This document shows, in pieces, positions 3,271-64,000 of a DNA stretch of 64,000 bases; within the stretch, counting starts at the first letter, position 1; the number at the start of each line of letters is the position of its first letter. This DNA comes from a virus. The stretch covers positions 1 to 64,000 of the IMG/VR virus record IMGVR_UViG_3300031787_000075, one strand, 5' to 3'. Below the pieces are notes generated by a model, which made no database searches, had not been told where the DNA came from, and saw only the letters and a program-made list of their open reading frames with translations. A program made the position numbers and the translations under genes.

Positions 3271-4143
3271 TCAAAAGTAACAAATTTCTTCAACATATTT
3301 CCAAGAAGCAAATTCTCTGCTTAAATGATTGAAATCTAATCCTATTGGACTTTTAATCATGTAGTCGCCTTTGTAAAACATTTTGTCCTTATTTTCAGGC
3401 AGAACCCCGGCATTATGTAATATTTTAACCTCCTTTAATCTTTCTATTTTTGAGGTGCTAAATGTGAAATCTAATTCTTTTGAAACCGAAACAGATTTTC
3501 CATAAGCATACATATTCCATAGAGTTGCCCACATTTCTGCTGTCCAAGATTGAATAGGGTGTTTAATTCCTACCTGTGTTTTATGGCTTTGCATAACCCT
3601 TAGTAAAGTTAGGCTATCTGCCTCGACTTTTTCCCAAAACTCTTTTGGAGTATCATTTAAGAAATACTGGGCGCCAATAACATTGTTTTTATTAAACTCA
3701 ATGATGGCAGGATTTATATGGATGGAATTAGCCATATCCTCTAGTAAGCTTTCACCTTTGCTTTTTATGTATTCCACCCCTAAATATGCCCTACAATCGC
3801 TTCCATACCACTTACAAGTGCATAGCGTTTCTAGTTGTAATGGCTCTATTAAAACAATATCAGAATCATGATAAAAGAATTTTTGCCTTAAATATTGAGA
3901 GTGCTTTGCCATGCCTTGTGGTTTATACATAGCAACGTATGTCCTTGGTTCTATTTCATAACAAAATATTTTTATCGGCAGCCTTTTTTCTAACTCCAAA
4001 AGACCTTGTGTTTTTTCTTTTTGAATTAAAAATATGGCATGAATGTCTTTCGGGTCTATGCCTTTCCTTATAAAGTTTTTGGAATAGACCTCTACCTGCC
4101 AATGAAAGTATGGTGCATCAGGCTGTGAACTTACATATATCAT
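3271..4143 (-). CDS. Putative glycosyltransferase, GT-A-like, 290 aa
   Basis: The protein begins with a beta strand ending in SSQPDAPYFHWQ. It has a central HDSDIVLIEPL motif (residues ~92-102) that matches the nucleotide-sugar/metal-binding DxD strand of GT-A glycosyltransferases, and a conserved-looking QSWTAEMWA segment. This layout recalls the hydroxyproline/serine O-glycosyltransferase-like proteins encoded by some marine and Bacteroidota phages (from memory). The start codon overlaps the stop of the threonine-rich protein gene by 4 nt, so the two are translationally coupled. The obvious inference is that it glycosylates that protein. Substrate is unproven. Confidence 0.6.
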   Translation of the reverse strand: MIYVSSQPDAPYFHWQVEVYSKNFIRKGIDPKDIHAIFLIQKEKTQGLLELEKRLPIKIFCYEIEPRTYVAMYKPQGMAKHSQYLRQKFFYHDSDIVLIEPLQLETLCTCKWYGSDCRAYLGVEYIKSKGESLLEDMANSIHINPAIIEFNKNNVIGAQYFLNDTPKEFWEKVEADSLTLLRVMQSHKTQVGIKHPIQSWTAEMWATLWNMYAYGKSVSVSKELDFTFSTSKIERLKEVKILHNAGVLPENKDKMFYKGDYMIKSPIGLDFNHLSREFASWKYVEEICYF

Positions 4144-5579
4144 GGAGCTGGAATTGTTACTTCATAAATACATGGACCCAAGAAGAATATAAACTTAACA
4201 GGCAACGTATAAGGGGCAGATGGTATGGTAAGTGATAGTAAATCAATGTTTGTGCCAACTAAAACTCCAAATTCATCGTAAACATAATCAAAAGGACCCA
4301 ATGGGCTTCCTGTAAATGTTATGTTTCCATCAAGGTCTTGCCCTACAATCTCGTTAGGAGGACACTCTGTTGTTGTCGTTGTTGTGGTAGTGGTGGTAGT
4401 TGTTGTGGTGGTTGTAGGCATTGTGACAACAACATCGTATTCACAGCCTCCAATAGTGAATGTCCATGTTCCTATTTCTAAAGAGAAGCTAAATGGCAAT
4501 GTTATGTTATTATAAACAACATTAGAAGGGCTTGTTATTGTAAATGGACCCGAAGGGCTTCCGTTAAATATTATGTACCCAGGGCCTATTATATAAGTTA
4601 TTTCGTTTGGTGCACAAGTTGTTGTAGTCGTAGTGGTTGTTGTGGTAGTAGTTGTTGTGCTAGTAGTAGTGGTGGTTGTCGTAGTGGTTGTGGTAGTTGT
4701 AGTAGTCGTTGTGGTTATACCTATTTCGACATTATAAACACAAGAGTCATACTCTCCTCCAAAAACAGTAAACTCCCATGTTCCTGCCACATCTCCAATC
4801 ACATCAAAAACTTCCGGCAATTGAACCTCTGAAAAGAATTGAACTAACAAAGGATCGGAAGGAGTAAATTTTACATTAAAAACATAGCTTTCAAAATCTT
4901 TTGCCTCAAAAAGAATAGAAGACTCTGTAATTATTGAACCAACGATAGGTATTACAGGGCAGGAGTTTATTGTTGTGGTGGTAGTTGTGGTTGTAGTGGT
5001 TGTAGCTGTTACCGCGCAAAAATAAGAACACTCTAATGTTTCAAAACCTATACCATCGCTGTTTTTAAGTAAATTAAACTTATATGTTCCTTGTTGTATT
5101 CCCAGTTCTAATGTTCCTGAACTCACAACAAAATTTCCTAAATCTTGTGGCTCACCCAATTCAGGATAGTAAATAACATTGTAGGTTCCGTTTTCAGAAA
5201 TATTGAATACTAGAACTGTTTCTTGAACTGTGTAAGATATGATTATTGTGGGGCAATTTCTAGGTGCGACTGCAGGAACTTGAACTACTTTGTCGCAATC
5301 GTCATTGCAATTATCTTTTACTACATCATAAACACTCATACCTAAAACATTCATTACATACAATTCGCCAATCAATATCCTTGTGCCATCTTCTTTTTGG
5401 CAATAAACAAATATTTGAGCATCGTTAAGGTAAATAGAGGTTATGACCGTTTTTACAAAACAAACTTCATAATAGTATTTACAATCAATATCAGTCGATA
5501 TGAAATCTCTTACCGCTTTTATCAGATACGCCTCCGGACCTGAATTAATGTCGTTTCTATAAAAAGTTTGTATTGGCAT
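4140..5579 (-). CDS. Virion-cluster protein with three polythreonine tracts
   Basis: 479 aa. An N-terminal domain (residues 1-190) is followed by three compact beta-rich, two-cysteine domains separated by nearly pure Thr runs: about 11 Thr near residue 192, about 32 Thr with one Ser near 290, and 16 Thr near 390. The spaced domains look like small Ig-like units, with phrases such as GPFTI, GTWTFT and GGxYD recurring. The Thr codons are mixed (ACA, ACC, ACT, ACG), which points to selection for the amino acid. Long Thr runs behave as extended, mucin-like linkers and are favoured O-glycan acceptors. The gene follows the 1174-aa tail gene and overlaps a glycosyltransferase gene. Likely a tail or surface decoration protein. 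Confidence 0.7.
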   Translation of the reverse strand: MPIQTFYRNDINSGPEAYLIKAVRDFISTDIDCKYYYEVCFVKTVITSIYLNDAQIFVYCQKEDGTRILIGELYVMNVLGMSVYDVVKDNCNDDCDKVVQVPAVAPRNCPTIIISYTVQETVLVFNISENGTYNVIYYPELGEPQDLGNFVVSSGTLELGIQQGTYKFNLLKNSDGIGFETLECSYFCAVTATTTTTTTTTTTINSCPVIPIVGSIITESSILFEAKDFESYVFNVKFTPSDPLLVQFFSEVQLPEVFDVIGDVAGTWEFTVFGGEYDSCVYNVEIGITTTTTTTTTTTTTTTTTTSTTTTTTTTTTTTTTCAPNEITYIIGPGYIIFNGSPSGPFTITSPSNVVYNNITLPFSFSLEIGTWTFTIGGCEYDVVVTMPTTTTTTTTTTTTTTTTECPPNEIVGQDLDGNITFTGSPLGPFDYVYDEFGVLVGTNIDLLSLTIPSAPYTLPVKFIFFLGPCIYEVTIPAP

Positions 5580-5581
5580 TT

Positions 5582-8500
5582 TTAAGACCTTTCTGAACCT
5601 ACTACTTCCATTGAACTAGAGTACAATATTACTATTTCGTTTCCATTAAATTCTGTAATTGTATTGCAGGCATGACCACGCAAATCATCTCCGTTTATCA
5701 ATCCATTTCTTTTTTGGGCATCGTTTAAAGGAGTTCCAAATCTTAAATAGTTTTTGTTTGTGGCAGCATGATAAACGCCTTCTTTCATCCTGTATTGAGC
5801 GCCTTTTATTTCGCTTTCTTGTCCATTAGGATTTACTTCGGAAGGTGGTATGGATTGAAATGAAATCAATGGAACCCTATTGCTTCTTAAAGAATGAGCG
5901 TCAAAAACTTTAACCTTCTTTGGTTCTACATTTGTAACCACACCAGCTTTCATGGTTTTAGCCTGCCCTAAAAAATTTAAAAAATCATCTCCGCTATTCA
6001 TTATCCAAATATTACCTTGATAGAAAGCTACTCCTAATCCAACGCAATCTCCATAATTATCAATAGGGTTTATTCCAAAACAATGGTCGTAAAATCCATG
6101 CCAGTAACCTTTATCCGGACACCAAGCTATTGCATCGTAAAACTCTTCATTTTTGGTTATTAAAACGTAAAGTAATTTGTTTTCTTGATCCCAACCAGTA
6201 ATAACCTCCGAATCTGCTTCTCCTGATAATTGTTCTGAAACGTCTTGCCAAAACCTTATGGCCTTTCTTTTGGATATGTCTTCGCTTCCGTTTGGAGAAT
6301 TTCTAACAAAGCATCGGTTTAGCACGTCAAAAAAGTAAACACTTCTTTCGTTTACATAGACAGACTCCGGATGCTTGGTTCCGTAACTATCCTCTGAATA
6401 GTTTATTGAACCTATTAGCGAATCCGTAACAACAAGCTGTGTGCTTCCATCTGCGTTTTGAATTTGTCTTCTACCTATAAAGGCAGAACTGATATTGGAC
6501 CATTGCAGTATCTTCATGGTGTAACCAATAAGCCTCAACCCTGTTATTGCTCCATACTTTTGCTCCAGTATTCTGTAATCGCCTTCATAAAAAACATTAG
6601 TGTTATTTACGTTGGTGTTTTCAAATAGCTTTCCTGTCCACCTCAACATTGAAAATATGTTTTGACTTTTCATGTTAGGGGTTTCGGCCTGCACCCTTCC
6701 TTTGGAATAAAATTCAGACCTCCACCATTCAGATATGCTAAAACTTTCTATATGGTATTGTCCAGGCTTTGACGCATCTGAACCCATAGACCTCCATCTT
6801 TTGTAAATATTGCCTGCATAGGTTTCAAATCCTGAACCTAATCCATAAGACCTTGCTTCTGTTCCGGGGTCAATTATCTCTCCGTATTGAATACCTGAAT
6901 CATACTCATTCATTGGCAATTCAAAGTAAACCGGTTCAAATCCTGGCTGATAAACCTCAAATAAAGTATTGTCACCTATTTTTGAGGCAGGATACCCGAA
7001 ATCTGAAATGCTTATTACAGGATATCCGCTTCCATCTAATTTAACACTCAATATTTGAACATCTATGTATTGAGGCACAATTATTCTATTGGTATCATCC
7101 AAATCGTTGTCGTGTTGGGTTTGCGTTAAAAACCTTAACCTGTTTCCTGCCCATTCAGTGTATTCAAAATCAACCACTCCCTTTGAACCAAATCTTATAG
7201 AAGAAATTGTTGGGTTATTTCCTTCCACAAAAAACTTATAAGAAGCTACGGTTATTTCAATCACATTATCTACATAATGTATATTCGATAAAGTAAAAAA
7301 CGCGCATTTTTTTACGTTGCATTTATGGACTATTTTAAAATACTTTGCCCATATCGGAGGTTGTGTTGTTATGTTTATTTTGGCTCCGTACTTCTTAGGA
7401 ATGTATTCATAGGAATCTGATATTGGATACCTTTCTTGAACAAATGGTATGTATAACTCTCCTAAAACCTCTGTTGCGCCCTGCCTCATAAATTCATCAA
7501 AATGAACTATGGCAAATTTATGTGTGGCACCTTCTTTAAATGCTTGTTCAGGATTGTTTGTGCTATAAACATAAGAGTCGTTTATTTTATATCCTATCAA
7601 TGGATTTACTAATGTTCCATATAAATAGTTGCTTACAGAGTTCCAAAATATATCGGCTCCAACAATATTAGTTAAAGCAATAGAAAGATTTGTTCCAAAA
7701 GTATTTAACGAAGCTATGTCTGCAGATGTTAAAACATAAGACCAACTATAAGTTTCTGTGTCTGTCGGAGAAGAAACGATTGAATATGTTCCATAAACAA
7801 TATCTCCTACACTTCTGCTTGCCACAGAAGACACTATTGATATGAAATAAGGAGGTGTGGGGTCAATAACCACTAACTCTATTATTTTTTCAGGGTAAAA
7901 ATTAAAAACCAAGCTTTCTTCTATTTCTTCTATTTCAGCTTCCACTCCAATTGGATTGTAACCCTCGGTTATATCTCCATATAAAACTTGGTTTCCTGGA
8001 ACTATTTCTTGTTGGTTAGCTAATTGAGGTATGGCATAAAAATTTGTTTCGGCTTCGATATCGCTTAATGCGATCGTTTCTTCATCTCCGTAAAAATTAA
8101 CAGAATTTACTGGGGCATCTATTTCAGCAAACCTATACCAATTAGGATTTGTTTCTCCCGAACCTGCTCCATTTCCTTCCCTAACAAACCATTCAACCTT
8201 TTCAACGGTTTCATGTATTGGCGCTGTACTATAAACAGAAATGTAGTTGAAATCGTCTGAACCTGATATTGGTCTATCAAAATTTAAGTAAAAGCCTTCT
8301 TTTTTCCATAACAAACTTATTTCGCTAAATGGGCTTAAAGGGGAGTATTCTCCATCCTTGTACTTGTATCTTAGCGCGAATTGGTAATGGTTGTATGGCA
8401 GAAAGTTTGTCTTCCTATTAAAGTCTTTTTGAAAAGAAAGCATGGGGCTTCTTTGCGGCTGAATCTTGCCAACACTAATCCAAAACTTATCTATATCTAA

Positions 8501-9106
8501 GCTTCCACCTTCCTGCAATTTAAGGTAAACATCAACGGTATTAAGTCTTTTTGGAATATCTACCCCATCTGTCCAAAACAATAATTGAACTGGTATGTCA
8601 TTCCCAAAAACAGGATGCAATGGTTCTCTTTCCGGCCAATCAGAAATTACTTTTCCTGTTTCTACTATGAAAGGATTTTGAAACCTCTTTGTGAAATTTA
8701 ATACATCACCCCAATTTAATGGAGGTATTCCTGGGCTGTATAAAGACAATGCTTCGATAAAAGGAGTTAATCCTATTGGGCTTCTCCAATATCTATAAAT
8801 GGCATGATAGCCATTACTATTCATATTGAAAAATATTATAGCATTGTTTTTTATGTCTTTACACCATGCCACACACTTGTTACTGCCTATTGGCAATTGA
8901 AAGTTATTTGTAAATGATTGCGTAACCGCGTTCCAAAATCTAGTCACTTTGGTCCACGACTTTAAAGACTCTGCTGCACCTTTGTTTCTAGCACTAGAAG
9001 AGTTTGCTGTGGCATTTCTCAAATAAGAGTAAAAACCCGGCTCTATGTTTCTGAAATCGCTGTCCAGATCCAAACCATTTCTAAATAAACTTTCTTGTTC
9101 AGGCAT
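5582..9106 (-). CDS. Large tail protein, muzzle-like, 1174 aa
   Basis: The largest virion gene of the left block. The protein is beta-rich throughout, full of aromatic and Asn/Ser/Gly turns, with no membrane segment or enzyme motif. It begins MPEQESLFRNGLDLDSD and has repeated blade-like segments such as NKCVAWCKD, NKLLYVLI and GNIWIMNSG. In crAss-like phages a protein of similar size placed after the ring proteins forms the tail 'muzzle', and similar large beta-rich proteins form T7-like nozzles. Assignment rests on size, position and composition. The start overlaps the stop of the 266-aa gene by one base. Confidence 0.6.
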   Translation of the reverse strand: MPEQESLFRNGLDLDSDFRNIEPGFYSYLRNATANSSSARNKGAAESLKSWTKVTRFWNAVTQSFTNNFQLPIGSNKCVAWCKDIKNNAIIFFNMNSNGYHAIYRYWRSPIGLTPFIEALSLYSPGIPPLNWGDVLNFTKRFQNPFIVETGKVISDWPEREPLHPVFGNDIPVQLLFWTDGVDIPKRLNTVDVYLKLQEGGSLDIDKFWISVGKIQPQRSPMLSFQKDFNRKTNFLPYNHYQFALRYKYKDGEYSPLSPFSEISLLWKKEGFYLNFDRPISGSDDFNYISVYSTAPIHETVEKVEWFVREGNGAGSGETNPNWYRFAEIDAPVNSVNFYGDEETIALSDIEAETNFYAIPQLANQQEIVPGNQVLYGDITEGYNPIGVEAEIEEIEESLVFNFYPEKIIELVVIDPTPPYFISIVSSVASRSVGDIVYGTYSIVSSPTDTETYSWSYVLTSADIASLNTFGTNLSIALTNIVGADIFWNSVSNYLYGTLVNPLIGYKINDSYVYSTNNPEQAFKEGATHKFAIVHFDEFMRQGATEVLGELYIPFVQERYPISDSYEYIPKKYGAKINITTQPPIWAKYFKIVHKCNVKKCAFFTLSNIHYVDNVIEITVASYKFFVEGNNPTISSIRFGSKGVVDFEYTEWAGNRLRFLTQTQHDNDLDDTNRIIVPQYIDVQILSVKLDGSGYPVISISDFGYPASKIGDNTLFEVYQPGFEPVYFELPMNEYDSGIQYGEIIDPGTEARSYGLGSGFETYAGNIYKRWRSMGSDASKPGQYHIESFSISEWWRSEFYSKGRVQAETPNMKSQNIFSMLRWTGKLFENTNVNNTNVFYEGDYRILEQKYGAITGLRLIGYTMKILQWSNISSAFIGRRQIQNADGSTQLVVTDSLIGSINYSEDSYGTKHPESVYVNERSVYFFDVLNRCFVRNSPNGSEDISKRKAIRFWQDVSEQLSGEADSEVITGWDQENKLLYVLITKNEEFYDAIAWCPDKGYWHGFYDHCFGINPIDNYGDCVGLGVAFYQGNIWIMNSGDDFLNFLGQAKTMKAGVVTNVEPKKVKVFDAHSLRSNRVPLISFQSIPPSEVNPNGQESEIKGAQYRMKEGVYHAATNKNYLRFGTPLNDAQKRNGLINGDDLRGHACNTITEFNGNEIVILYSSSMEVVGSERS

Positions 9107-54357: not shown

Positions 54358-55115
54358 TTCTGTATTAATTTAGGTAAATCTTCGTGAATAGGTGTAGTAT
54401 CAAATACGTCATGCCATGCCCAAGGATTAAACTTATCCATGCCCTTTAGCTTTTTATCGCTATCCATGACGAACACGTCTTCCTGCATGGTTTTGATTTT
54501 AGTTGGGTGAATGTATGGGTCACGAACAAATCCCATGTGGTATATTCTAAGGTGAGGAATACTGGCAGTATTTGTTATTGGCTTTAATGAACCTATGCTT
54601 TCGGCATCTCCATGCGCACCATAAATTTTATCTGATTTAACCAACCTAGTTACTATTGTACTACAAGGCTGTCCATTTTTTGGATGATCTAAATATTGGT
54701 ATGGCGAACCCCATAAATTAAACCTAGTGAACTGGTATTCGTTATACTTGGAATCAGAATCAACTATTCCCCTTAAAACATCGTAGCTGTCTTCATGCAA
54801 AATTTCATCTGCTTGCAAGCTAAAAACCCAATCGCAATTTCTCATTTTTACTAAATGGTCTATGCCTAAATTGGTGTAATAGCTAAGTCTTAGTTTGCCA
54901 ATTCTTTTAAAACTATTCCATTCGTAATCGGTGCAAAATATTCTATCTATGTTTTGAATAGAATTAATAATATCAAATGTTTGGTCCTCGGTTTTGATAC
55001 AAACCACGCAAACATGGTCGCAAACCTGTTTCAAGCACTCAATGGCTTGCTGAAATGGGTAATCTAGTTTAACACCATCTCTTATGAACAATACTCCTCC
55101 TAATTTATTTTTCAT
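54333..55115 (-). CDS. GT2-like glycosyltransferase, 260 aa
   Basis: GT-A domain with WVFSLQADEILHED (Asp-Glu metal site) about residue 95, and AIECLKQVCDHVCVV near the start. LRIYHMGFVRDPYIHP near the end is typical of the acceptor side. Overlaps the GT9-like gene by 25 nt and the bifunctional glycosyltransferase gene by 11 nt. Probably adds sugars to a phage protein or to host surface structures. Confidence 0.65.
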   Translation of the reverse strand: MKNKLGGVLFIRDGVKLDYPFQQAIECLKQVCDHVCVVCIKTEDQTFDIINSIQNIDRIFCTDYEWNSFKRIGKLRLSYYTNLGIDHLVKMRNCDWVFSLQADEILHEDSYDVLRGIVDSDSKYNEYQFTRFNLWGSPYQYLDHPKNGQPCSTIVTRLVKSDKIYGAHGDAESIGSLKPITNTASIPHLRIYHMGFVRDPYIHPTKIKTMQEDVFVMDSDKKLKGMDKFNPWAWHDVFDTTPIHEDLPKLIQKWAHLRNY

Positions 55116-56475
55116 CGTGCCAACAACATAAAGGTATTTGTAATCCTAAAATACATGGTTGGCCTTGGGTTCCTCCTTCTATATGCCAACACCCATGATA
55201 CTCGCATTTGCCTTGCCTAATATCAATATCTGATAGGTCTAAATGAATCAATTCAGGCTTAACGCTTCCAAAATAAATTACAGACTTCTTTTTCATAGCC
55301 ACAGCTAAATGAGAAGGACCGGAATCTATTCCTATGAAAAATTCGCTATGCCATATAATTGACATAATAGTTGTAATCGAAAGATTAATGACAGGAATAA
55401 CGCCTTCAACATTATAAACATCCTTATCCAACTTTTCGCCATTGCCAATCAATATAACATTGGTTCCTGAATCAACTATCTCCTTGCATATTTTAGCAAA
55501 ATTATCTACTGGGTTTCTGTAATTCTGCTCTCTTCTATCAATGTGCATTACGGCATAAGGAAAATCAAATATTCTATTAGTGTCATTCAACTCTATTCTT
55601 GGTGGGTTAGCTTTTGGCCTTTCTCCAAATGCTGCAAAATAAGCCTCGATATGATTTAGGGTTGGCATCATTTCGTATGACATATCCAAATCCACAACTA
55701 AATCATAATCTATTTGACTTGTATGTAATCTAACCGTATAGGGTTGAAAAGTAAAAACTTGTTCTAGCCCTGGTGTGGTTTCTAAATAAACGGTATAACC
55801 TTTTTCGCTAAAATACCTTAATACTGGCTCCACTTGAATTACATCTCCAAGCGCTCCCATTCTCTTAACCAAAACATTCTTGCTTGCTATTTTGTGAAAT
55901 GTGCCATGAAAGCCAAATGTTTTACCTTTAGGAGGATTAAGTTCATAGGAAAATTTACTGGCAATATGCTCTGGGGCAAATTTACACCCGCTAATTTCTA
56001 AGCTGCCTCTCCATAACCTGCCAATACATTCATCCTCCGGACCTAAAACAGGCTTATCCTCTGTTAATTCAAGTAGCTTTTTACTCCTTAAACTAAAACC
56101 TCCATTACCTACGTTTCTACCATCAATGTAAAGCCATGGCGCTCCAATGTAATCGTATTCTAAAAATTCGTTGGACCATTCGCTGCCATTAATTACAAAT
56201 CCATCATGCTGAATCACCAATACATGACTATAATCCAAGTTCAAGCTGTTTAACAGGTGCGGCATCTTGTTAATAATAAACCTGCTGTAATCATTAGCAT
56301 CTACAATTTTGTCTATTTTGTAGGTAATTGTGTTGGTAACACTAATACTAAGGTCCGTAAACCAAACCACCTTTTGAGGTCGAATGTGTTTTAGGGTTTG
56401 ATTGATTGCATATACGCAATCGCTATAATTCTTTGTGTCAGCAATGACGACAACTATTTGTTTTAAATCAATCAT
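55105..56475 (-). CDS. Bifunctional glycosyltransferase, DUF5672 plus GT9, 456 aa
   Basis: The ATG at 56475 (MIDLKQIVVVIADTKN) is preferred because an upstream extension would run through the tRNA-like gene. Residues ~1-190 match DUF5672: DYIGAPWLYIDGRNVGNGGFSLRS and EDECIGRLWR. Residues ~195-440 form a GT9-type GT-B unit: VLVKRMGALGDVIQVEPVL, VILIGNGEK and FFIGIDSGPSHLAVAM. C-terminal Cys/His cluster (QGKCEYHGCWHIEGG). First gene of the glycosyltransferase operon. Fusing two transferase folds suggests consecutive sugar additions. Confidence 0.75.
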   Translation of the reverse strand: MIDLKQIVVVIADTKNYSDCVYAINQTLKHIRPQKVVWFTDLSISVTNTITYKIDKIVDANDYSRFIINKMPHLLNSLNLDYSHVLVIQHDGFVINGSEWSNEFLEYDYIGAPWLYIDGRNVGNGGFSLRSKKLLELTEDKPVLGPEDECIGRLWRGSLEISGCKFAPEHIASKFSYELNPPKGKTFGFHGTFHKIASKNVLVKRMGALGDVIQVEPVLRYFSEKGYTVYLETTPGLEQVFTFQPYTVRLHTSQIDYDLVVDLDMSYEMMPTLNHIEAYFAAFGERPKANPPRIELNDTNRIFDFPYAVMHIDRREQNYRNPVDNFAKICKEIVDSGTNVILIGNGEKLDKDVYNVEGVIPVINLSITTIMSIIWHSEFFIGIDSGPSHLAVAMKKKSVIYFGSVKPELIHLDLSDIDIRQGKCEYHGCWHIEGGTQGQPCILGLQIPLCCWHDEK

Positions 56476-56479
56476 ATTG

Positions 56480-56561
56480 TGGGGAGGACAGGATTCGAAC
56501 CTGCACGATGTTTTAGTTGTCGTTACCAACCTTACTACCACCATTCCACATCTACCTCCCC
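56480..56561 (-). tRNA. tRNA-like gene, anticodon uncertain
   Basis: 82 nt. A perfect 7-bp acceptor stem (GGGGAGG/CCTCCCC), discriminator A, and a T arm GCAGG-TTCGAAT-CCTGT are canonical. A possible anticodon arm GGTTG-GTAACGA-CAACT would give U33 and anticodon AAC, but no good D stem is seen. A GATGT/ACATC pairing competes with the ordinary fold. CCA is not encoded. Its 3' end is 5 nt before the ATG of the next gene. Confidence 0.5.
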
Positions 56562-57226: not shown

Positions 57227-60200
57227 CTACATTTTTTTAGGTAATTTTCCATAAATAGATTTGATTTTATCTTTTTGGGCAGGAATTAAAGCTTTATTGG
57301 TCATTAACTTATCTAAGAAATCTTTGGCCTGAACGTACTGCATAGGAAGGTTTCTGTTAAATGCGTACAACAATTCAAACCATTGTAATTTCTGCTCTGG
57401 TGTTATTGACTCTTTTTCGCTTAAATCATCAACTATGTAAGATAATTCCTTAAGGTTTTCGCCAAACCTGAATTGCTTATAAGAATCCTCGAATTGCTTT
57501 GCCTCTACTGGAAACTCTTTCTTAAACTTTTTCATGTTTTCAGGCTTTACATAATCTGCAGGAGTTATGTGGTCGTCATTGAACATCTTTTCTATTTCTA
57601 GCATGTTAACGCCTTTTGACTCTAGCATAGGATTAAAGCTGTTTTTGTGTTTTGTAACGGCTTCTAATTGCTTCCAAAACAAAGCGTATTCTCTACCTCT
57701 TTGCCATGTATTTTTAGTGGCAAAACGATATGGATTTTCAAGTAGCTTTCTTTCGCTATCGCTATTTAGTTCTAATGCAAATCTAGCGTTTGCACCAAAC
57801 TGCGCTTTTAAGAAATAGTCTGTCTTCATAGGGCTTACACCAAACTTTTCTCCCATCCACTTAGCAAACTCGCTTGTGTTCTTGTTTTGTTGGTATTGAC
57901 TCTCCATATTAGCGTACTCTCCTGTTACAATAGGCATTAATGTAGGGTAAGATTTAACACTTAATAAAGTATTAATTGTTGGAGAAACAGCTGTTGGAAT
58001 CATTTGCAAAGCATTTGCTCCTGCCATATCGCTATCTCCAGTCAAAATACCTTCCAAAATACCTTCCGCTTGTTTAACTCCTCCTGGCAAACCCTCTCTT
58101 ATTGGTGAAAAATATTGGCTTGGAGTGTATTTGAATGGTGCTTTTTTGTTTTTCTCATAAGCATAAGAAAAGGCAGCCATTTGAGAAATACCTGTGATCG
58201 CTGTAATAGATTCAGGAACCCTTACCCTAATCCATTTCAATTCAGGTCCACCCCATATAAATACATACTTGGCAAACTCTTCTGATGGTTTATTGGCCAT
58301 TGCAGCAATATCATCATCATCTCCTCCTCCATTAAACACCTGCATAATACTATACGCACTTATAAATGCTAATGTGGCAGCTAATCCTCCTCCTCGTTTT
58401 GGATTTTTCTTTATCGACTCTATGTTTTTTAGTAGCGCCTGCAATGATGCGTTCCAATAAACGTGTGACCTATAAGCTACCCTTCCAGCTCTACCAAACA
58501 TTAAACCTCTTCTGTAAAAAGGGGCAGAAACATTGGCTGCCATAAATAATGCTGTACTATCGTCATAACCTAAGTCTATTGCTCTTTTAAATTCAGCAAA
58601 CCTAGTCATAATCTCTGTGGCATTAACAGGAGCGGCCAAAACATCAATGGCGGTATCAAAAACTTGTTTAGCCTTGGTTCCAATTGTTTTCTTAGGAGAA
58701 ACTCTGTTAATTATTTCACCTACGGTTTCTGTTCTGTCAAAATTAAACGCCTTAGAAGCATTGAATCTATCCCCTGCTAGTGCTAAATACTTTTTAAGCA
58801 ACTCTTCACCTTGCGGGGTGTCTATCTTCATTCCCAACTCGTTTAAAACAGTTCTCCATTGCGTGAATACTTGTATAGCATCTCCGGCACCAATGAAATC
58901 TCTTTTTCCTGTAGTTGAGTTTATAAAGGCAGATATTTGGTCAATGGTAAAGTTTCTTAACGCAAATGTCGGGTTGGCGGCTGTGGTCATTAATCCAAAC
59001 ACATTAGCACCTGCAAACAATATCTTTTCCCATGCACCATTCATGTCTTCCGGGCTTAATGTTGTGGCTAAAGCCTTAATCCAATCCGCTGCCTCGTAAT
59101 ACTGCTTGCTTCCATTTATGTAAAAACTAACATACCCTCTGTTCTCTAAGTGGCCAAATGTAGGAACGCCACCAATCATAACAGCGGTCTTAGGTACTCT
59201 AATAAAATCTTGGTTTAGCTGTCTTTTACTTATGCCCATGTCCTCACCATGCTCGTTAACGAATTGGGCAAATTTCATCCAAAACATATTGTTGTAACCC
59301 TTCATGATGGTTTTAGGAATATGTAAAATCATTGCCTCTAACGGACCAATGAAAGACTTTCCTGAACTACCAGTTCTCTTTTTAAACTGTGTTAGGTTTC
59401 CTCCTTGTGAGTTTCCTCCCCCTGTCATTAAATCGTCATGGATATATCTTTGGAAGGAAGCATAGTCTTTATTTTTAGACCATTCCTTATAAGACTCTTC
59501 ACTTATTAAGCCGGTATTCCTAGCGACCTCTAACAAATGCTCATTTATCTTATCAAAAATGGCAGTAGCATCTTTAAACTCTTTCTCAAAGGCAGCTATG
59601 CCTGCATTTACCTGCCTAATATCAAAATTATCGTTGTTTACTATGGTTCTGTACTCAACAAATTTATCAAGAAGCCTTTTAGCTATTTGGGCTTGAACAG
59701 GAGTCATTGCATCAGGGTCCGGAAAGTTTGCCATATACATATCGTAATCGTTCTTAGCATCAACCATTCTATTATAATCCCCTTTTGCCCTCCTGTTGAT
59801 TAGGTATTGATTAAATACATCTCTAACAAACTCTATATCCCTATCATTCTTTTTTGCGATCCTACCTAATTCATCCAAAATACTATTAACACTAAGTTTT
59901 TCATATTTGTAGGTTCCATTTTTTTGAATAATGGCCATCATTTGCTTTCCATTTAACCATGCCTGGGCAATAGGTCCGCTCTGCATATTGGTAAAATAAG
60001 CAATCTCTAGGCTTTCATCACTCAATGCGGTATCAGCTAATTCATCCAATGTCCTAAATGCGCTGCCGGTGTCGAATTGCAATGCCATATACATTTTAAA
60101 TCCTACATCAGACACGTTTACGTTTTTCCATGAACTTTCAGCGCCAAAACCTTTTTTAACCTCTTGTTGCGCATCTGCCATCCTTAATCCTGTACTGAAT

Positions 60201-63200
60201 ATTGGTGACAACTGTTTTACACCATCCATTATGTTAGCCATGGCATCATACAGCTTGTTCACCAATGGATGATTGTATGTTGAACCACTAACAAATACTT
60301 TATTGAATATCTCTGAATAGTCTTGCGAAATCTTAATAGGGTCCGCTAAATACTCATTCATAAACACCGCTAGACCTTCTATTACTTGTAAGCTTGTTGG
60401 GTGTGTTGGCTTGGCATTAGGATAAAATTCTTGGTAAATCTGTTTTAGTTCATTTATTAAATCCTTATCCCCTGAATCAATAATGTTTTTGGCCATACCA
60501 TTTGTTTGGTCGATAAAGTGCATGCCCTCATGTATGGCAGTAAATATCTCCATCAACGATCTGGTGCCAATATATTTCTGCCTAATAAAATACGCTCCCA
60601 ATGCTCTAGGAACCTTTTTCTCTCTTACAGGAACTCCAATATCATTTAAAGCCTTTTTAACTCTGCCAGACAAACTAAAATAATCAGCTGTCAAAGGACC
60701 CATTCCTCTATCATTGTAAATGTATTGAGGAACACCATTTCTATTTACGGCGATTTGAACATTTGGTTTAGCATTTCCTACCTCCGATATGAATTGTTGG
60801 GCAGTTTTTAGGTCTTGGTAAGCCATTGACTTTAACGAGGCAAATATTTGTTTCTGCTCTTCATTGTCGGTTGCCGCTGCCAACGCATCCATATTCTGTA
60901 AAAACTCTCTTAGCGTTTTTGCAGGCATTAACTTGGCAGCGCTAACGGCATCAACAAAACCTTTACTTGCGCCTTGTCCAAAAACAGCTAATGCCAGGCT
61001 ATCTGTCGTAACGGCTTTGTACTTTGTCTTAACCCTTTCGTAGGCGTATCTAATCCATTCCTCTGAACCCTGTCCTAACCTTACCGCTAAATCTTTGAAA
61101 TTAGTAATGCCTTGTTTTACATATAAGGCAACTACTTTTATGAACTTACCTGCCATAACTAAGCCGGTAGGGTCGTTTTGATTTGGCCTAATGCCTAAAC
61201 TCTTGTTTTTATCCCATTCCGATTTTAAATCGTCTATGGCGGCTTCTAGTTTTGTTTTTGAAACTTCATATTGTGGGCTCTCAACTTCATTAAAGATTCT
61301 TTGGCGTTCTGCCTCAAAGAATTTATCTCTGATTGAGTTAAGCGACTTGAATTTATAAATTCTTGCTGCTTGTCCTTTAGTAAGTTCTTCTGTGTTTCTT
61401 GCGATTCCATAATCTTGGACAAATGTATTTAATTTTTCTTTACCAAACTTATCATTCAACTTATTTAATAAATCTTTTGAAATAATTTGGTTTGGACCAA
61501 ACCTGCCTTGCGCCAAATTTGTTGACAAAACAACCTTTCCTCCGTTTTCCTCTACAAAAATTTCTAAAGCCTTCAAAGTTGCTCCGCTAGTGCTTACATC
61601 ATCAATAAGAATGTATTCTTGACCTGGATTTATTTTACCATCGAAATATACAGGTCTTAAAAGTCTTGCAGCTGGGGAAGCGCCTGTATGATAAGACCTA
61701 TTTGATTGAACAATATCTGTTTCTATCTCATTTCCGTATATTTCATGTATTTTTTGAGCATAAGCCAAAGGCAGCATATTTCTACCTGTCCTTTCATTTG
61801 ATATTACAGGAATTAACTTAGCGTTAGGGTAATTAGATATGCTAGACAATCTTTCACTCTTTACTATCTTATTTACAATCTCGTAAGCTGAAATAATATC
61901 ACCTGATTTAGCTTTTTCGTAATCTTTTGTTTTGACTAAATTAGAAATTGAGGTATGATTAATGTTTTCAACCTGCATTAAAGGCAATCCCCTATCAGAA
62001 AGTGCATTGTAAAGATTATCGGTTATTGGAATAGACATTCCGGAGGTGTATCCTTTTGCGTAATCCATGTCAACATCTATTGGAGAAACCCTTACGTTTT
62101 TGTCGTACTTTCTAGCAACCTTCTCAAACGCCTTGCCTACATCGCCTATTTCACCTTCTTTTACTGAACCGTAATACTTTTTCATAGGTTCAGAACCAAT
62201 AGTATGCTCGTCAACCTTTATTTCTTTTAAACCTGTGCTATACTCTCTGCCTTCTCCATTTTTTATTTTATTGGCTATTTCAGAACCTAATAAATCTTTA
62301 ACCCTATCAAAAGAAACATTTGTTTCAAAAAAAACTTCTTTGTTATTGTAAGTACCTGTTATAAAATAATTGTCGTAGGTCTTAAAGTAGTTATACTGAA
62401 TAGTATCAACAACATTGGATATTCTAAATCTTTGAGAAACCTGCTCCCCAGTATTCCATGCCACAGCATCATATCCGTTTTCAACCGCGTATTTTAATGC
62501 TCTCTTAGCGGCAAGGTCTGTATAAGTTTTTTTGAATGGGGCAATTGGAGTTTTGCCTTCTTTAATTCTGTATGATTGGTCTGTAAATTCAGGGTTGTTA
62601 ATCGCCCAATCCTCGGCCTCTTCTGATGAATAGAAAATAGGAGCTCCTTTTATCTTATCTCCATTCATTTTAGTGACAAAGAATTGACCTTTATAGCCAT
62701 AATCTCTTCCAGCTTCATGCCTTTGGCTTTGTATTTCGTCAATAACCATTACTTTTCTGCCATCCTCTGTAACGGAATCTCCAAACCTTAGCCACACCAA
62801 GGCTCTGCCAGTTGTTACTGTTCCAAAATGTATATCATCATTTAGATTATATAATTCAACCTCTTTAGAATATTTTGCATTACTTGAAAATTCTCTTCCG
62901 CTTGCGTATATAACAATTTCTTTTTTATTAGATAAATCAGGTGAGGTGTATTGTAATCTAGTTGAGTTTATTTGGTTTTCGTACTCTTCAAAATATGATT
63001 CCCTTATTTCGTCTTGAACAGCTTCTTTAATTGTATCTACTGAATTAAGAAACTTATTGGCATAATCAAGCATATCCATAGCGGTTGCAAACGCATCTGG
63101 ATTTTGAATTAAATTTGAGGTTATAAGTTCTTGTTCTAAAACCTTTAAGGAGTCTTCGTTAGGGTTTTGATTATATTTTGTTACAGCATCTCTAACATCT

Positions 63201-64000
63201 TCAATATAAACCACGTCTTCTTCTGTAGCATCCCATCCTGAACCAAAAACATAATAAGAAGAGTCTTCACCTCTGCTTAAGTTATTTTCACTTAAAAACA
63301 GTCTAGCTTCGGCTATTGTGGCTCCATCTAAACTGCTTTTCTTTTCTGTTGACAGTATCTTTTCAGCAATCTCAACCTTGTTTTCTTTCAAAAACTTTAA
63401 TGCAGCATCCTTAGTGATTTTATTGTACTTGTTCTCTTCAATGTAATCCTCGAAGCCGGTCCAATAAACCTCTTCTCTGTCCAATAACCCTTCGTTTGCT
63501 CTTGCCTCAATCCAATCCTTCCATTGCGCTCCGGTCATGGTGTTGCCTTTTTGTTCAATAGCTGAATTTAGTCTGCTGTACCAGTCAACAACAATTGTTT
63601 TGGCAGTTTTATCCTTGGCAATGTCTTGAATAGCGGCTTTGTCAAACATGGTTTTAACAGCGGCTTGTGTAAAGGCATCTAAATCCATTTCAGACAATTG
63701 TTTGGCAGTAACCTTGTCTAGGCCAACTATATCTTTAATTGCTTGCCAAAACTCTTTTAGCCACTCCGTAAAGCCTTTCTTTTCATTGGCAGCCATTACC
63801 ACTCCTTTGTCTGCAATGGCTCTTACTAGGGCTTCTTCTTGCTTCTGTTTGTACGTTAATTTAGCATAGGCAGGATTGTTCTCCACCTCTTCTAAATACT
63901 TGCTACCCACAACCAATTCCAAACCTCTTCTTAAAACATCGGGTCTGTGTTCTGAAAGCAATTTAGTAAAGGCATGGCCAAACTCATGTATTGGCGTTTC
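57227..64000 (-). CDS. Giant polyvalent protein, N-terminus outside window
   Basis: 2257 residues are visible. The frame continues past 64000, so the true start is not seen. Domains in order: a zinc-protease motif HEFGHAF at the right edge (HExxH); a conserved module with VMVIDEIQSQRHEAGRDYGY...FKKTYTDLAAKRALKYAVENGYDAVAWNTGEQ (about residues 400-520), common in phage polyvalent proteins; a phosphoribosyltransferase-like motif YILIDDVSTSGATL (~residue 795); a second HExxH, IHEGMHFID (~1155); and a C-terminal LPD38-like region (~1650-2100) with hydrophobic stretches. Such proteins are usually carried in the virion and ejected into the cell. The individual activities are inferred from motifs. 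Confidence 0.75.
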   Translation of the reverse strand, partial: ETPIHEFGHAFTKLLSEHRPDVLRRGLELVVGSKYLEEVENNPAYAKLTYKQKQEEALVRAIADKGVVMAANEKKGFTEWLKEFWQAIKDIVGLDKVTAKQLSEMDLDAFTQAAVKTMFDKAAIQDIAKDKTAKTIVVDWYSRLNSAIEQKGNTMTGAQWKDWIEARANEGLLDREEVYWTGFEDYIEENKYNKITKDAALKFLKENKVEIAEKILSTEKKSSLDGATIAEARLFLSENNLSRGEDSSYYVFGSGWDATEEDVVYIEDVRDAVTKYNQNPNEDSLKVLEQELITSNLIQNPDAFATAMDMLDYANKFLNSVDTIKEAVQDEIRESYFEEYENQINSTRLQYTSPDLSNKKEIVIYASGREFSSNAKYSKEVELYNLNDDIHFGTVTTGRALVWLRFGDSVTEDGRKVMVIDEIQSQRHEAGRDYGYKGQFFVTKMNGDKIKGAPIFYSSEEAEDWAINNPEFTDQSYRIKEGKTPIAPFKKTYTDLAAKRALKYAVENGYDAVAWNTGEQVSQRFRISNVVDTIQYNYFKTYDNYFITGTYNNKEVFFETNVSFDRVKDLLGSEIANKIKNGEGREYSTGLKEIKVDEHTIGSEPMKKYYGSVKEGEIGDVGKAFEKVARKYDKNVRVSPIDVDMDYAKGYTSGMSIPITDNLYNALSDRGLPLMQVENINHTSISNLVKTKDYEKAKSGDIISAYEIVNKIVKSERLSSISNYPNAKLIPVISNERTGRNMLPLAYAQKIHEIYGNEIETDIVQSNRSYHTGASPAARLLRPVYFDGKINPGQEYILIDDVSTSGATLKALEIFVEENGGKVVLSTNLAQGRFGPNQIISKDLLNKLNDKFGKEKLNTFVQDYGIARNTEELTKGQAARIYKFKSLNSIRDKFFEAERQRIFNEVESPQYEVSKTKLEAAIDDLKSEWDKNKSLGIRPNQNDPTGLVMAGKFIKVVALYVKQGITNFKDLAVRLGQGSEEWIRYAYERVKTKYKAVTTDSLALAVFGQGASKGFVDAVSAAKLMPAKTLREFLQNMDALAAATDNEEQKQIFASLKSMAYQDLKTAQQFISEVGNAKPNVQIAVNRNGVPQYIYNDRGMGPLTADYFSLSGRVKKALNDIGVPVREKKVPRALGAYFIRQKYIGTRSLMEIFTAIHEGMHFIDQTNGMAKNIIDSGDKDLINELKQIYQEFYPNAKPTHPTSLQVIEGLAVFMNEYLADPIKISQDYSEIFNKVFVSGSTYNHPLVNKLYDAMANIMDGVKQLSPIFSTGLRMADAQQEVKKGFGAESSWKNVNVSDVGFKMYMALQFDTGSAFRTLDELADTALSDESLEIAYFTNMQSGPIAQAWLNGKQMMAIIQKNGTYKYEKLSVNSILDELGRIAKKNDRDIEFVRDVFNQYLINRRAKGDYNRMVDAKNDYDMYMANFPDPDAMTPVQAQIAKRLLDKFVEYRTIVNNDNFDIRQVNAGIAAFEKEFKDATAIFDKINEHLLEVARNTGLISEESYKEWSKNKDYASFQRYIHDDLMTGGGNSQGGNLTQFKKRTGSSGKSFIGPLEAMILHIPKTIMKGYNNMFWMKFAQFVNEHGEDMGISKRQLNQDFIRVPKTAVMIGGVPTFGHLENRGYVSFYINGSKQYYEAADWIKALATTLSPEDMNGAWEKILFAGANVFGLMTTAANPTFALRNFTIDQISAFINSTTGKRDFIGAGDAIQVFTQWRTVLNELGMKIDTPQGEELLKKYLALAGDRFNASKAFNFDRTETVGEIINRVSPKKTIGTKAKQVFDTAIDVLAAPVNATEIMTRFAEFKRAIDLGYDDSTALFMAANVSAPFYRRGLMFGRAGRVAYRSHVYWNASLQALLKNIESIKKNPKRGGGLAATLAFISAYSIMQVFNGGGDDDDIAAMANKPSEEFAKYVFIWGGPELKWIRVRVPESITAITGISQMAAFSYAYEKNKKAPFKYTPSQYFSPIREGLPGGVKQAEGILEGILTGDSDMAGANALQMIPTAVSPTINTLLSVKSYPTLMPIVTGEYANMESQYQQNKNTSEFAKWMGEKFGVSPMKTDYFLKAQFGANARFALELNSDSERKLLENPYRFATKNTWQRGREYALFWKQLEAVTKHKNSFNPMLESKGVNMLEIEKMFNDDHITPADYVKPENMKKFKKEFPVEAKQFEDSYKQFRFGENLKELSYIVDDLSEKESITPEQKLQWFELLYAFNRNLPMQYVQAKDFLDKLMTNKALIPAQKDKIKSIYGKLPKKM

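What the first reader, a model, noticed from the sequence alone, without database searches (positions are those of the whole stretch)
3271..5579. Polythreonine 'mucin-like' virion protein coupled to a glycosyltransferase
The 479-aa protein has three pure Thr tracts of about 11, 32 and 16 residues separating small beta domains. The next gene overlaps its stop codon and encodes a GT-A-like protein. Thr codons are varied, so the tract is kept at protein level. A phage-made O-glycosylated surface protein would be a clear, little-described system that could hide the particle or bind mucus or host glycans.
Basis: partly seen in the sequence, partly recalled or inferred. Interest (0 to 1): 0.75.

Follow-up and report, generated by a model that had tools for sequence, protein, structure and literature searches.

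The report
Phage poly-threonine tags with paired glycosyltransferase
A crAss-like phage carries a protein with long runs of threonine next to an uncharacterised sugar-transferring enzyme, and across very different phages the same enzyme sits beside, or appears and disappears together with, threonine runs on capsid, tail and fibre proteins, so phages probably use it to coat their own particles with sugar.

Summary
In detail: ORF 4140-5579(-) has threonine runs of 11, 32 (one Ser inside) and 16, and its stop overlaps (ATGA) the start of ORF 3271-4143(-). That enzyme belongs to phrog_4417 (unknown function; no Pfam/NCBIfam/PDB sequence match); AlphaFold gives a confident GT-A fold (pLDDT 96) with an invariant DxD. 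The strongest evidence is comparative. In 111 of 125 loci encoding this enzyme there is a poly-Thr ORF, often the adjacent gene (47 of 76 dereplicated loci; 13 expected). Carriers fall into 32 sequence clusters: major capsid, major tail, connector, Ig-like and fibre proteins. In three separate major-tail-protein groups, tail proteins whose locus has the enzyme carry a C-terminal Thr tail (19 of 19, one short), and those without it never do (0 of 96); on one tree the enzyme switches repeatedly. Eighty loci from the window's own phage group lack both. I conclude that this is a phage-encoded O-glycosylation module in which poly-Thr is a portable acceptor tag. Sugar transfer itself, the donor and the benefit are inferred. 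Mycobacteriophage virion glycosylation is the nearest known case, but uses unrelated enzymes and, in Che8, no Thr tails. Poly-Thr also occurs without this enzyme.

The parts
4140..5579 (-). poly-threonine carrier protein, 479 aa, proposed glycan acceptor
   Evidence: ORF with three Thr tracts; directly after the muzzle-like gene, so likely a tail appendage (inference)
4971..5003 (-). Thr tract 1 (11 Thr)
   Evidence: sequence
4617..4715 (-). Thr tract 2 (18 Thr, Ser, 14 Thr)
   Evidence: sequence
4368..4415 (-). Thr tract 3 (16 Thr)
   Evidence: sequence
3271..4143 (-). phrog_4417 family GT-A glycosyltransferase, 290 aa, start overlaps the carrier's stop (ATGA)
   Evidence: phrog_4417 E 1.5e-66; AlphaFold pLDDT 95.9, pTM 0.91; Foldseek to GT-A glycosyltransferases; no hydrophobic segment, maximum Kyte-Doolittle 0.71, so probably cytoplasmic
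3859..3867 (-). DxD motif (Asp-Ser-Asp) of the glycosyltransferase
   Evidence: both Asp invariant in 49 aligned members; DSD invariant in 7
5582..9106 (-). neighbour: muzzle-like virion structural protein, 1174 aa (context)
   Evidence: phrog_14478 virion structural protein E 1.5e-36; tblastn to Cellulophaga phi38:1 'structural protein'

Best explanation
The two genes form a virion O-glycosylation module. The phrog_4417 enzyme is a soluble, cytoplasmic GT-A glycosyltransferase that puts a sugar from a host nucleotide-sugar on threonines (and probably the interspersed serines) of poly-Thr tracts in structural proteins made at the same time, before or during assembly. The tract is a portable tag: here it joins domains of a probable tail appendage; in other phages it is a short tail of 6-10 Thr on the major capsid protein, major tail protein or a connector, or stretches in fibres. 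The particle thus carries clusters of O-glycans. Shown: the tracts, their protein-level maintenance, linkage, co-gain and co-loss of enzyme and tracts, the GT-A fold with DxD. Inferred: transfer of sugar, Thr as the attachment point, donor, retaining chemistry, the advantage (most likely shielding from protease, antibody or unproductive contact, or altered surface binding).
For: (1) 111 of 125 loci with the enzyme, from Bacillota prophages, lytic phages and environmental virus contigs, have a poly-Thr ORF; in 76 dereplicated loci the enzyme is adjacent to one in 47, against 13.4 expected by random placement, never reached in 100,000 simulations. Most exceptions have a tract a few genes away, shorter runs of 6-7 Thr in the neighbouring capsid or tail gene, or truncated contigs. 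(2) The tract carriers fall into 32 clusters without detectable similarity, 18 with a member within 120 bp of the enzyme. (3) Presence/absence in three major-tail-protein groups: enzyme present 3/3, 5/5 (one short tail, TTTSTTS), 11/11 with Thr tail; enzyme absent 0/35, 0/26, 0/35; where enzyme and tail are present the capsid protein is often tailed as well. In the second group the enzyme label needs 5 changes on the tail-protein tree, at least 2 forced by well-supported branches. (4) Control: 80 loci of the window's own phage group fetched by the muzzle gene hold no enzyme; only 2 pass the tract threshold, with TQTTTQTTT. (5) Of 177 distinct tracts none is made of one codon. (6) GT-A fold, nearest solved structures all glycosyltransferases (WbbM, blood-group A/B transferases, Skp1 galactosyltransferase, xyloside xylosyltransferase, glycogenin).
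Against: No chemical evidence of glycosylation. Structural similarity to solved glycosyltransferases is only fold-level (TM about 0.45-0.55), so donor and acceptor cannot be read from it. Poly-Thr ORFs often occur without this enzyme nearby: 7 of 71 poly-Thr viral loci had it in the fetched stretch, though 6 of the 7 lie within 25 bp of it; other enzymes or a plain linker role must exist. A few loci have the enzyme away from any tract (L024, L031 next to a DNA polymerase-like gene) and two Bacteroidota chromosomal homologues have none. No close relative of the window's own carrier was found, so for this carrier the link rests on adjacency.
Confidence: 0.85

Rival explanations
1. The Thr runs are flexible linkers or stalks with no modification, and the enzyme acts on something else (phage DNA, or the host's cell wall as in serotype conversion); they sit together only because both lie in structural modules.
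For: Poly-Thr fibres exist without this enzyme nearby. Some enzyme-positive phages, such as VPE25, also glucosylate DNA, but the paper assigns that to a separate T4-like beta-glucosyltransferase (PMC4999554).
Against: Co-gain and co-loss of C-terminal Thr tails, which link nothing, with the enzyme in three tail-protein groups; the tract moves between unrelated carriers while the enzyme stays.
Confidence: 0.08
2. The enzyme is a GT-A-fold protein without sugar-transfer activity to protein, for instance a nucleotidyltransferase or a catalytically dead chaperone that binds poly-Thr.
For: No sequence match to any characterised family; only moderate TM-scores.
Against: Invariant DxD and other conserved polar residues across 49 diverse members; nearest solved folds are glycosyltransferases.
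Confidence: 0.05
3. It is the mycobacteriophage type of virion glycosylation (Che8, Corndog, Myrna) in another host.
For: Same general outcome: phage enzymes glycosylating C-termini of capsid and tail-tube proteins (Freeman 2023 as described in PMC12619734 and PMC12363180).
Against: The Che8 glycosyltransferases are GT25- and GT2-like and do not match this family's profile; Che8 capsid and tail proteins end without Thr runs.
Confidence: 0.02

Closest known systems
Mycobacteriophage virion glycosylation (Che8, Corndog, Myrna; Freeman et al. 2023, read only through papers citing it)
   Same: phage-encoded glycosyltransferases act on capsid and tail-tube proteins, at their C-termini
   Different: Che8 enzymes are GT25/GT2-like and unrelated by profile; no poly-Thr tails in Che8; in Che8 the enzymes are encoded at the far end of the genome rather than beside the acceptor
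PHROG family phrog_4417 ('prophage pi2 protein 34', bIL285 Orf45)
   Same: the enzyme is a clear member (E 1.5e-66)
   Different: family is annotated as unknown function; no acceptor had been linked to it in anything I could find
GT-A glycosyltransferases such as GT6 blood-group A/B transferases, glycogenin and xyloside xylosyltransferase (GT8), WbbM
   Same: fold and DxD motif
   Different: about 9-13% identity, TM about 0.45-0.55; no Pfam glycosyltransferase family matches the window protein
Mucins and other Pro/Thr/Ser-rich O-glycoproteins
   Same: dense Thr tracts, often with Pro/Ala spacers (KPTTTTTTT, AAPTTTTTT)
   Different: no homology; made in a bacterial cytoplasm, often as a short tail of 6-10 Thr

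Membership tests
phrog_4417 | profile match over full length | tested here: met
   E 1.5e-66, residues 1-287 to positions 1-288 of 293
GT-A glycosyltransferases | GT-A fold | tested here: met
   AlphaFold pLDDT 95.9; 249 Foldseek PDB hits at E<=0.001, the 50 listed all glycosyltransferases
GT-A glycosyltransferases | DxD metal/nucleotide-sugar motif | tested here: met
   both Asp of DSD invariant in 49 sequences
GT-A glycosyltransferases | match to a known Pfam/NCBIfam glycosyltransferase family | tested here: not met
   none for the window protein; one of 49 members hits Nucleotid_trans weakly, E 0.007
GT-A glycosyltransferases | sugar transfer activity | not testable with these tools
   needs an assay
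Mycobacteriophage-type virion glycosylation | homologous glycosyltransferase | tested here: not met
   profile against Che8 gp108, gp109, gp110 gives no significant score; they are GT2/GT25-like
Mycobacteriophage-type virion glycosylation | modification at C-termini of capsid and tail-tube proteins | tested here: inconclusive
   the proposed Thr tags are C-terminal on capsid and tail proteins in Bacillota phages, but not on the window's carrier, and the glycan is not shown
Mycobacteriophage-type virion glycosylation | reduced antibody recognition | not testable with these tools
   -
Crassvirales-like phage (the genome) | TerL, portal, structural and muzzle homologues in the usual order | tested here: met
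   phrog_6681, 6547, 13704, 14543 (weak, E 0.0056), 13977, 14478; nearest isolates Cellulophaga phi38:1 (Pervagoviridae) and Flavobacterium elemo phages

The most novel reading that the evidence does not exclude
phrog_4417 is a dedicated poly-threonine O-glycosyltransferase, and its enzyme plus tract form a mobile two-part system by which phages of Bacillota and Bacteroidota hosts add sugar coats to whichever structural proteins they tag: a previously unrecognised, widespread kind of phage particle modification.
Probability: 0.65. Interest if true: 0.85.

Novelty: new variant of a known kind. Interest (0 to 1): 0.74.

Why it matters
Glycosylated phage particles are documented in a few mycobacteriophages. 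This gives a function and an acceptor to an uncharacterised enzyme family found in many phages and prophages, including well-studied laboratory ones (Lactococcus bIL285, Enterococcus VPE25), and a sequence rule (poly-Thr tract beside phrog_4417) that predicts which virions carry sugar and on which protein. It bears on phage surface chemistry, immune recognition and adsorption, and could supply a simple cytoplasmic enzyme and tag for making O-glycoproteins in bacteria.

Tried and rejected
Sequence searches of Pfam, NCBIfam and PDB for the enzyme: nothing. Single-sequence scan of viral contigs with the window enzyme: no relatives; the alignment scan worked. Single-sequence AlphaFold of the carrier: pLDDT 35, not interpreted. 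Relatives of the carrier's N-terminal part or of the masked carrier among the loci fetched by then: none. DNA microsatellite expansion: rejected, codons are mixed. Strict one-to-one pairing of poly-Thr with this enzyme: rejected, most poly-Thr loci lack it nearby; their neighbours are mostly tail-fibre and other structural genes, with a family 2 glycosyltransferase in 3 of 36. Pfam Mucin and silk hits of the carrier: below cut-off, compositional. A further tail-protein alignment (A5) was too divergent to scan with. Literature searches for poly-Thr phage glycosylation found no prior description in the open-licence PMC set; subscription papers are not covered.

Full report
Observation. The 479-residue protein at 4140-5579(-) is real and has Thr runs of 11, 18+14 (one Ser between) and 16 residues. 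Its Thr codons follow the phage's normal Thr codon use, so the runs are maintained as protein. The stop codon overlaps the ATG of the 290-residue ORF at 3271-4143(-). The carrier follows a muzzle-like structural gene in a virus record of 73.5 kb whose terminase, portal and structural genes are of the crAss-like group, closest to Cellulophaga phi38:1 and Flavobacterium elemo phages.

The enzyme. It matches phrog_4417, unknown function, at 1.5e-66, and no Pfam, NCBIfam or PDB sequence. Isolate phages with relatives (74 records) infect mostly Enterococcus, Lactobacillus, Staphylococcus and Lactococcus, plus Chryseobacterium MA9V-3. Among 49 aligned members the two Asp of DSD and the residues G-Q, W-A-M, H-A-G and F-K are invariant. 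AlphaFold gives pLDDT 95.9 and pTM 0.91, and the best PDB folds are GT-A glycosyltransferases that, from general knowledge, belong mostly to retaining families: WbbM, blood-group A/B enzymes, Skp1 galactosyltransferase, xyloside xylosyltransferase, glycogenin. TM-scores near 0.5 mean that only the fold, not donor or acceptor, can be inferred.

Linkage. Reading the first isolates showed Thr runs in quite different genes directly before the enzyme: the major tail protein of phiFL1A, the major capsid protein of Enterococcus 4995_1, a 115-residue protein of Lactobacillus Semele, a 428-residue protein of MA9V-3. A collection of 80 virus-contig and 39 bacterial-genome loci plus six isolates gave 111 of 125 loci with a poly-Thr ORF. 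After dereplication, 47 of 76 have one as the neighbouring gene, against 13.4 expected. Most of the rest have a tract one or a few genes away, shorter runs of 6-7 Thr, or truncated contigs. Carriers fall into 32 clusters without detectable similarity, 18 of which have a member within 120 bp of the enzyme. Single-linkage clustering of masked sequences may split very distant relatives, so 32 is an upper-side figure. Several Bacillota prophages carry tags on capsid, connector and tail protein at once (L092, L093, L106).

Presence and absence. Three major-tail-protein groups were fetched by the tail protein's core, without its tail and regardless of the enzyme. Group 1: 3 of 38 loci have the enzyme, and exactly those three have Thr tails, on tail and capsid proteins both. 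Group 2: 5 of 31 have the enzyme; all five tail proteins end in Thr runs (one only TTTSTTS); 0 of 26 others do. Group 3: 11 of 46 have the enzyme and a run of 9-10 Thr; 0 of 35 others. Many loci within a group are near copies, so these are not 115 independent events; on the group 2 tree the enzyme label needs five changes, two of them forced by well-supported branches. Limits: absence means absence in the fetched stretch (about 1.5 kb each side in group 2, up to 10 kb in groups 1 and 3, several contigs shorter).

Controls. Eighty muzzle-gene loci from the window's own phage group have no enzyme, and none has a real poly-Thr tract; two reach the threshold with TQTTTQTTT. In the reverse direction, of 71 virus loci chosen for poly-Thr ORFs only 7 hold the enzyme in the fetched stretch, six of them within 25 bp. 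So the enzyme almost implies the tract, but the tract does not imply this enzyme.

Mechanism. The simplest reading is that the enzyme glycosylates the tract. Thr is the dominant acceptor, with Ser interspersed (3243 Thr to 423 Ser in 177 tracts). The absence of hydrophobic segments and the tagging of capsid and tail-tube proteins, which are made and assembled in the cytoplasm, point to cytoplasmic action with host nucleotide-sugars. ATGA overlap would allow coupled translation (inference). The window's carrier is probably a tail appendage whose domains are joined by glycosylated, stiffened stalks (inference). Two Bacteroidota chromosomal homologues, longer proteins, lie in clusters with a LanC-like gene or next to a peptidase-type ABC exporter gene and a LanC-like-looking gene, which would fit peptide acceptors but is only suggestive.

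Comparison. Phage-encoded glycosylation of capsid and tail-tube C-termini is known from mycobacteriophages (reported in PMC12619734 and PMC12363180; the original paper was not available). The Che8 enzymes are of other families and its capsid and tail proteins end without Thr runs. Hence: works like that system, is not a member of it. I file it as a new variant of a known kind.

Noticed in passing
L094 7465-12693 and L114 6704-12133 (Mucilaginibacter oryzae, Sphingobacterium sp.): Chromosomal homologues of the enzyme, in longer ORFs (566 and 711 aa), lie beside a LanC-like gene (L094) and beside a peptidase-type ABC transporter and a LanC-like-looking gene (L114); L094 also has an 85-aa double-glycine-leader-like ORF. 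They may be peptide-glycosylating RiPP-type clusters.
   Followed up: partly
L278-L357: Poly-Thr tail-fibre and other structural ORFs are frequent in environmental virus contigs without phrog_4417 nearby; 3 of 36 neighbours are family 2 glycosyltransferases, so other enzymes may use the same kind of tag.
   Followed up: partly
L399 (Enterococcus phage VPE25) 2367-8243: A laboratory phage with the enzyme (SCO93502), a Thr10 tail on its major tail protein and a TTTTTTKKP stretch in a 392-aa structural-region protein.
   Followed up: partly
L089-L106, GT ORFs about 355 aa: Bacillaceae-type prophages have the enzyme with a C-terminal extension of about 60-70 residues (..FPKPANKKVSEERLKELSS..) of unknown role.
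   Followed up: no
window 57227-63961 (-): 2244-aa ORF with an LPD38 large-polyvalent-protein domain (Pfam E 4.6e-12).
   Followed up: no
window 56479-56561 (-): Single tRNA-Val (anticodon aac) gene, overlapping the start of ORF 55105-56544.
   Followed up: no
L411 (tail protein ending EKGTETTDTGTGKTNGTTTP): Tail protein 89% identical to the Thr-tailed bIL285 one but with a broken, Thr-rich tail and no enzyme in a short contig: possibly a decaying tag after enzyme loss.
   Followed up: no
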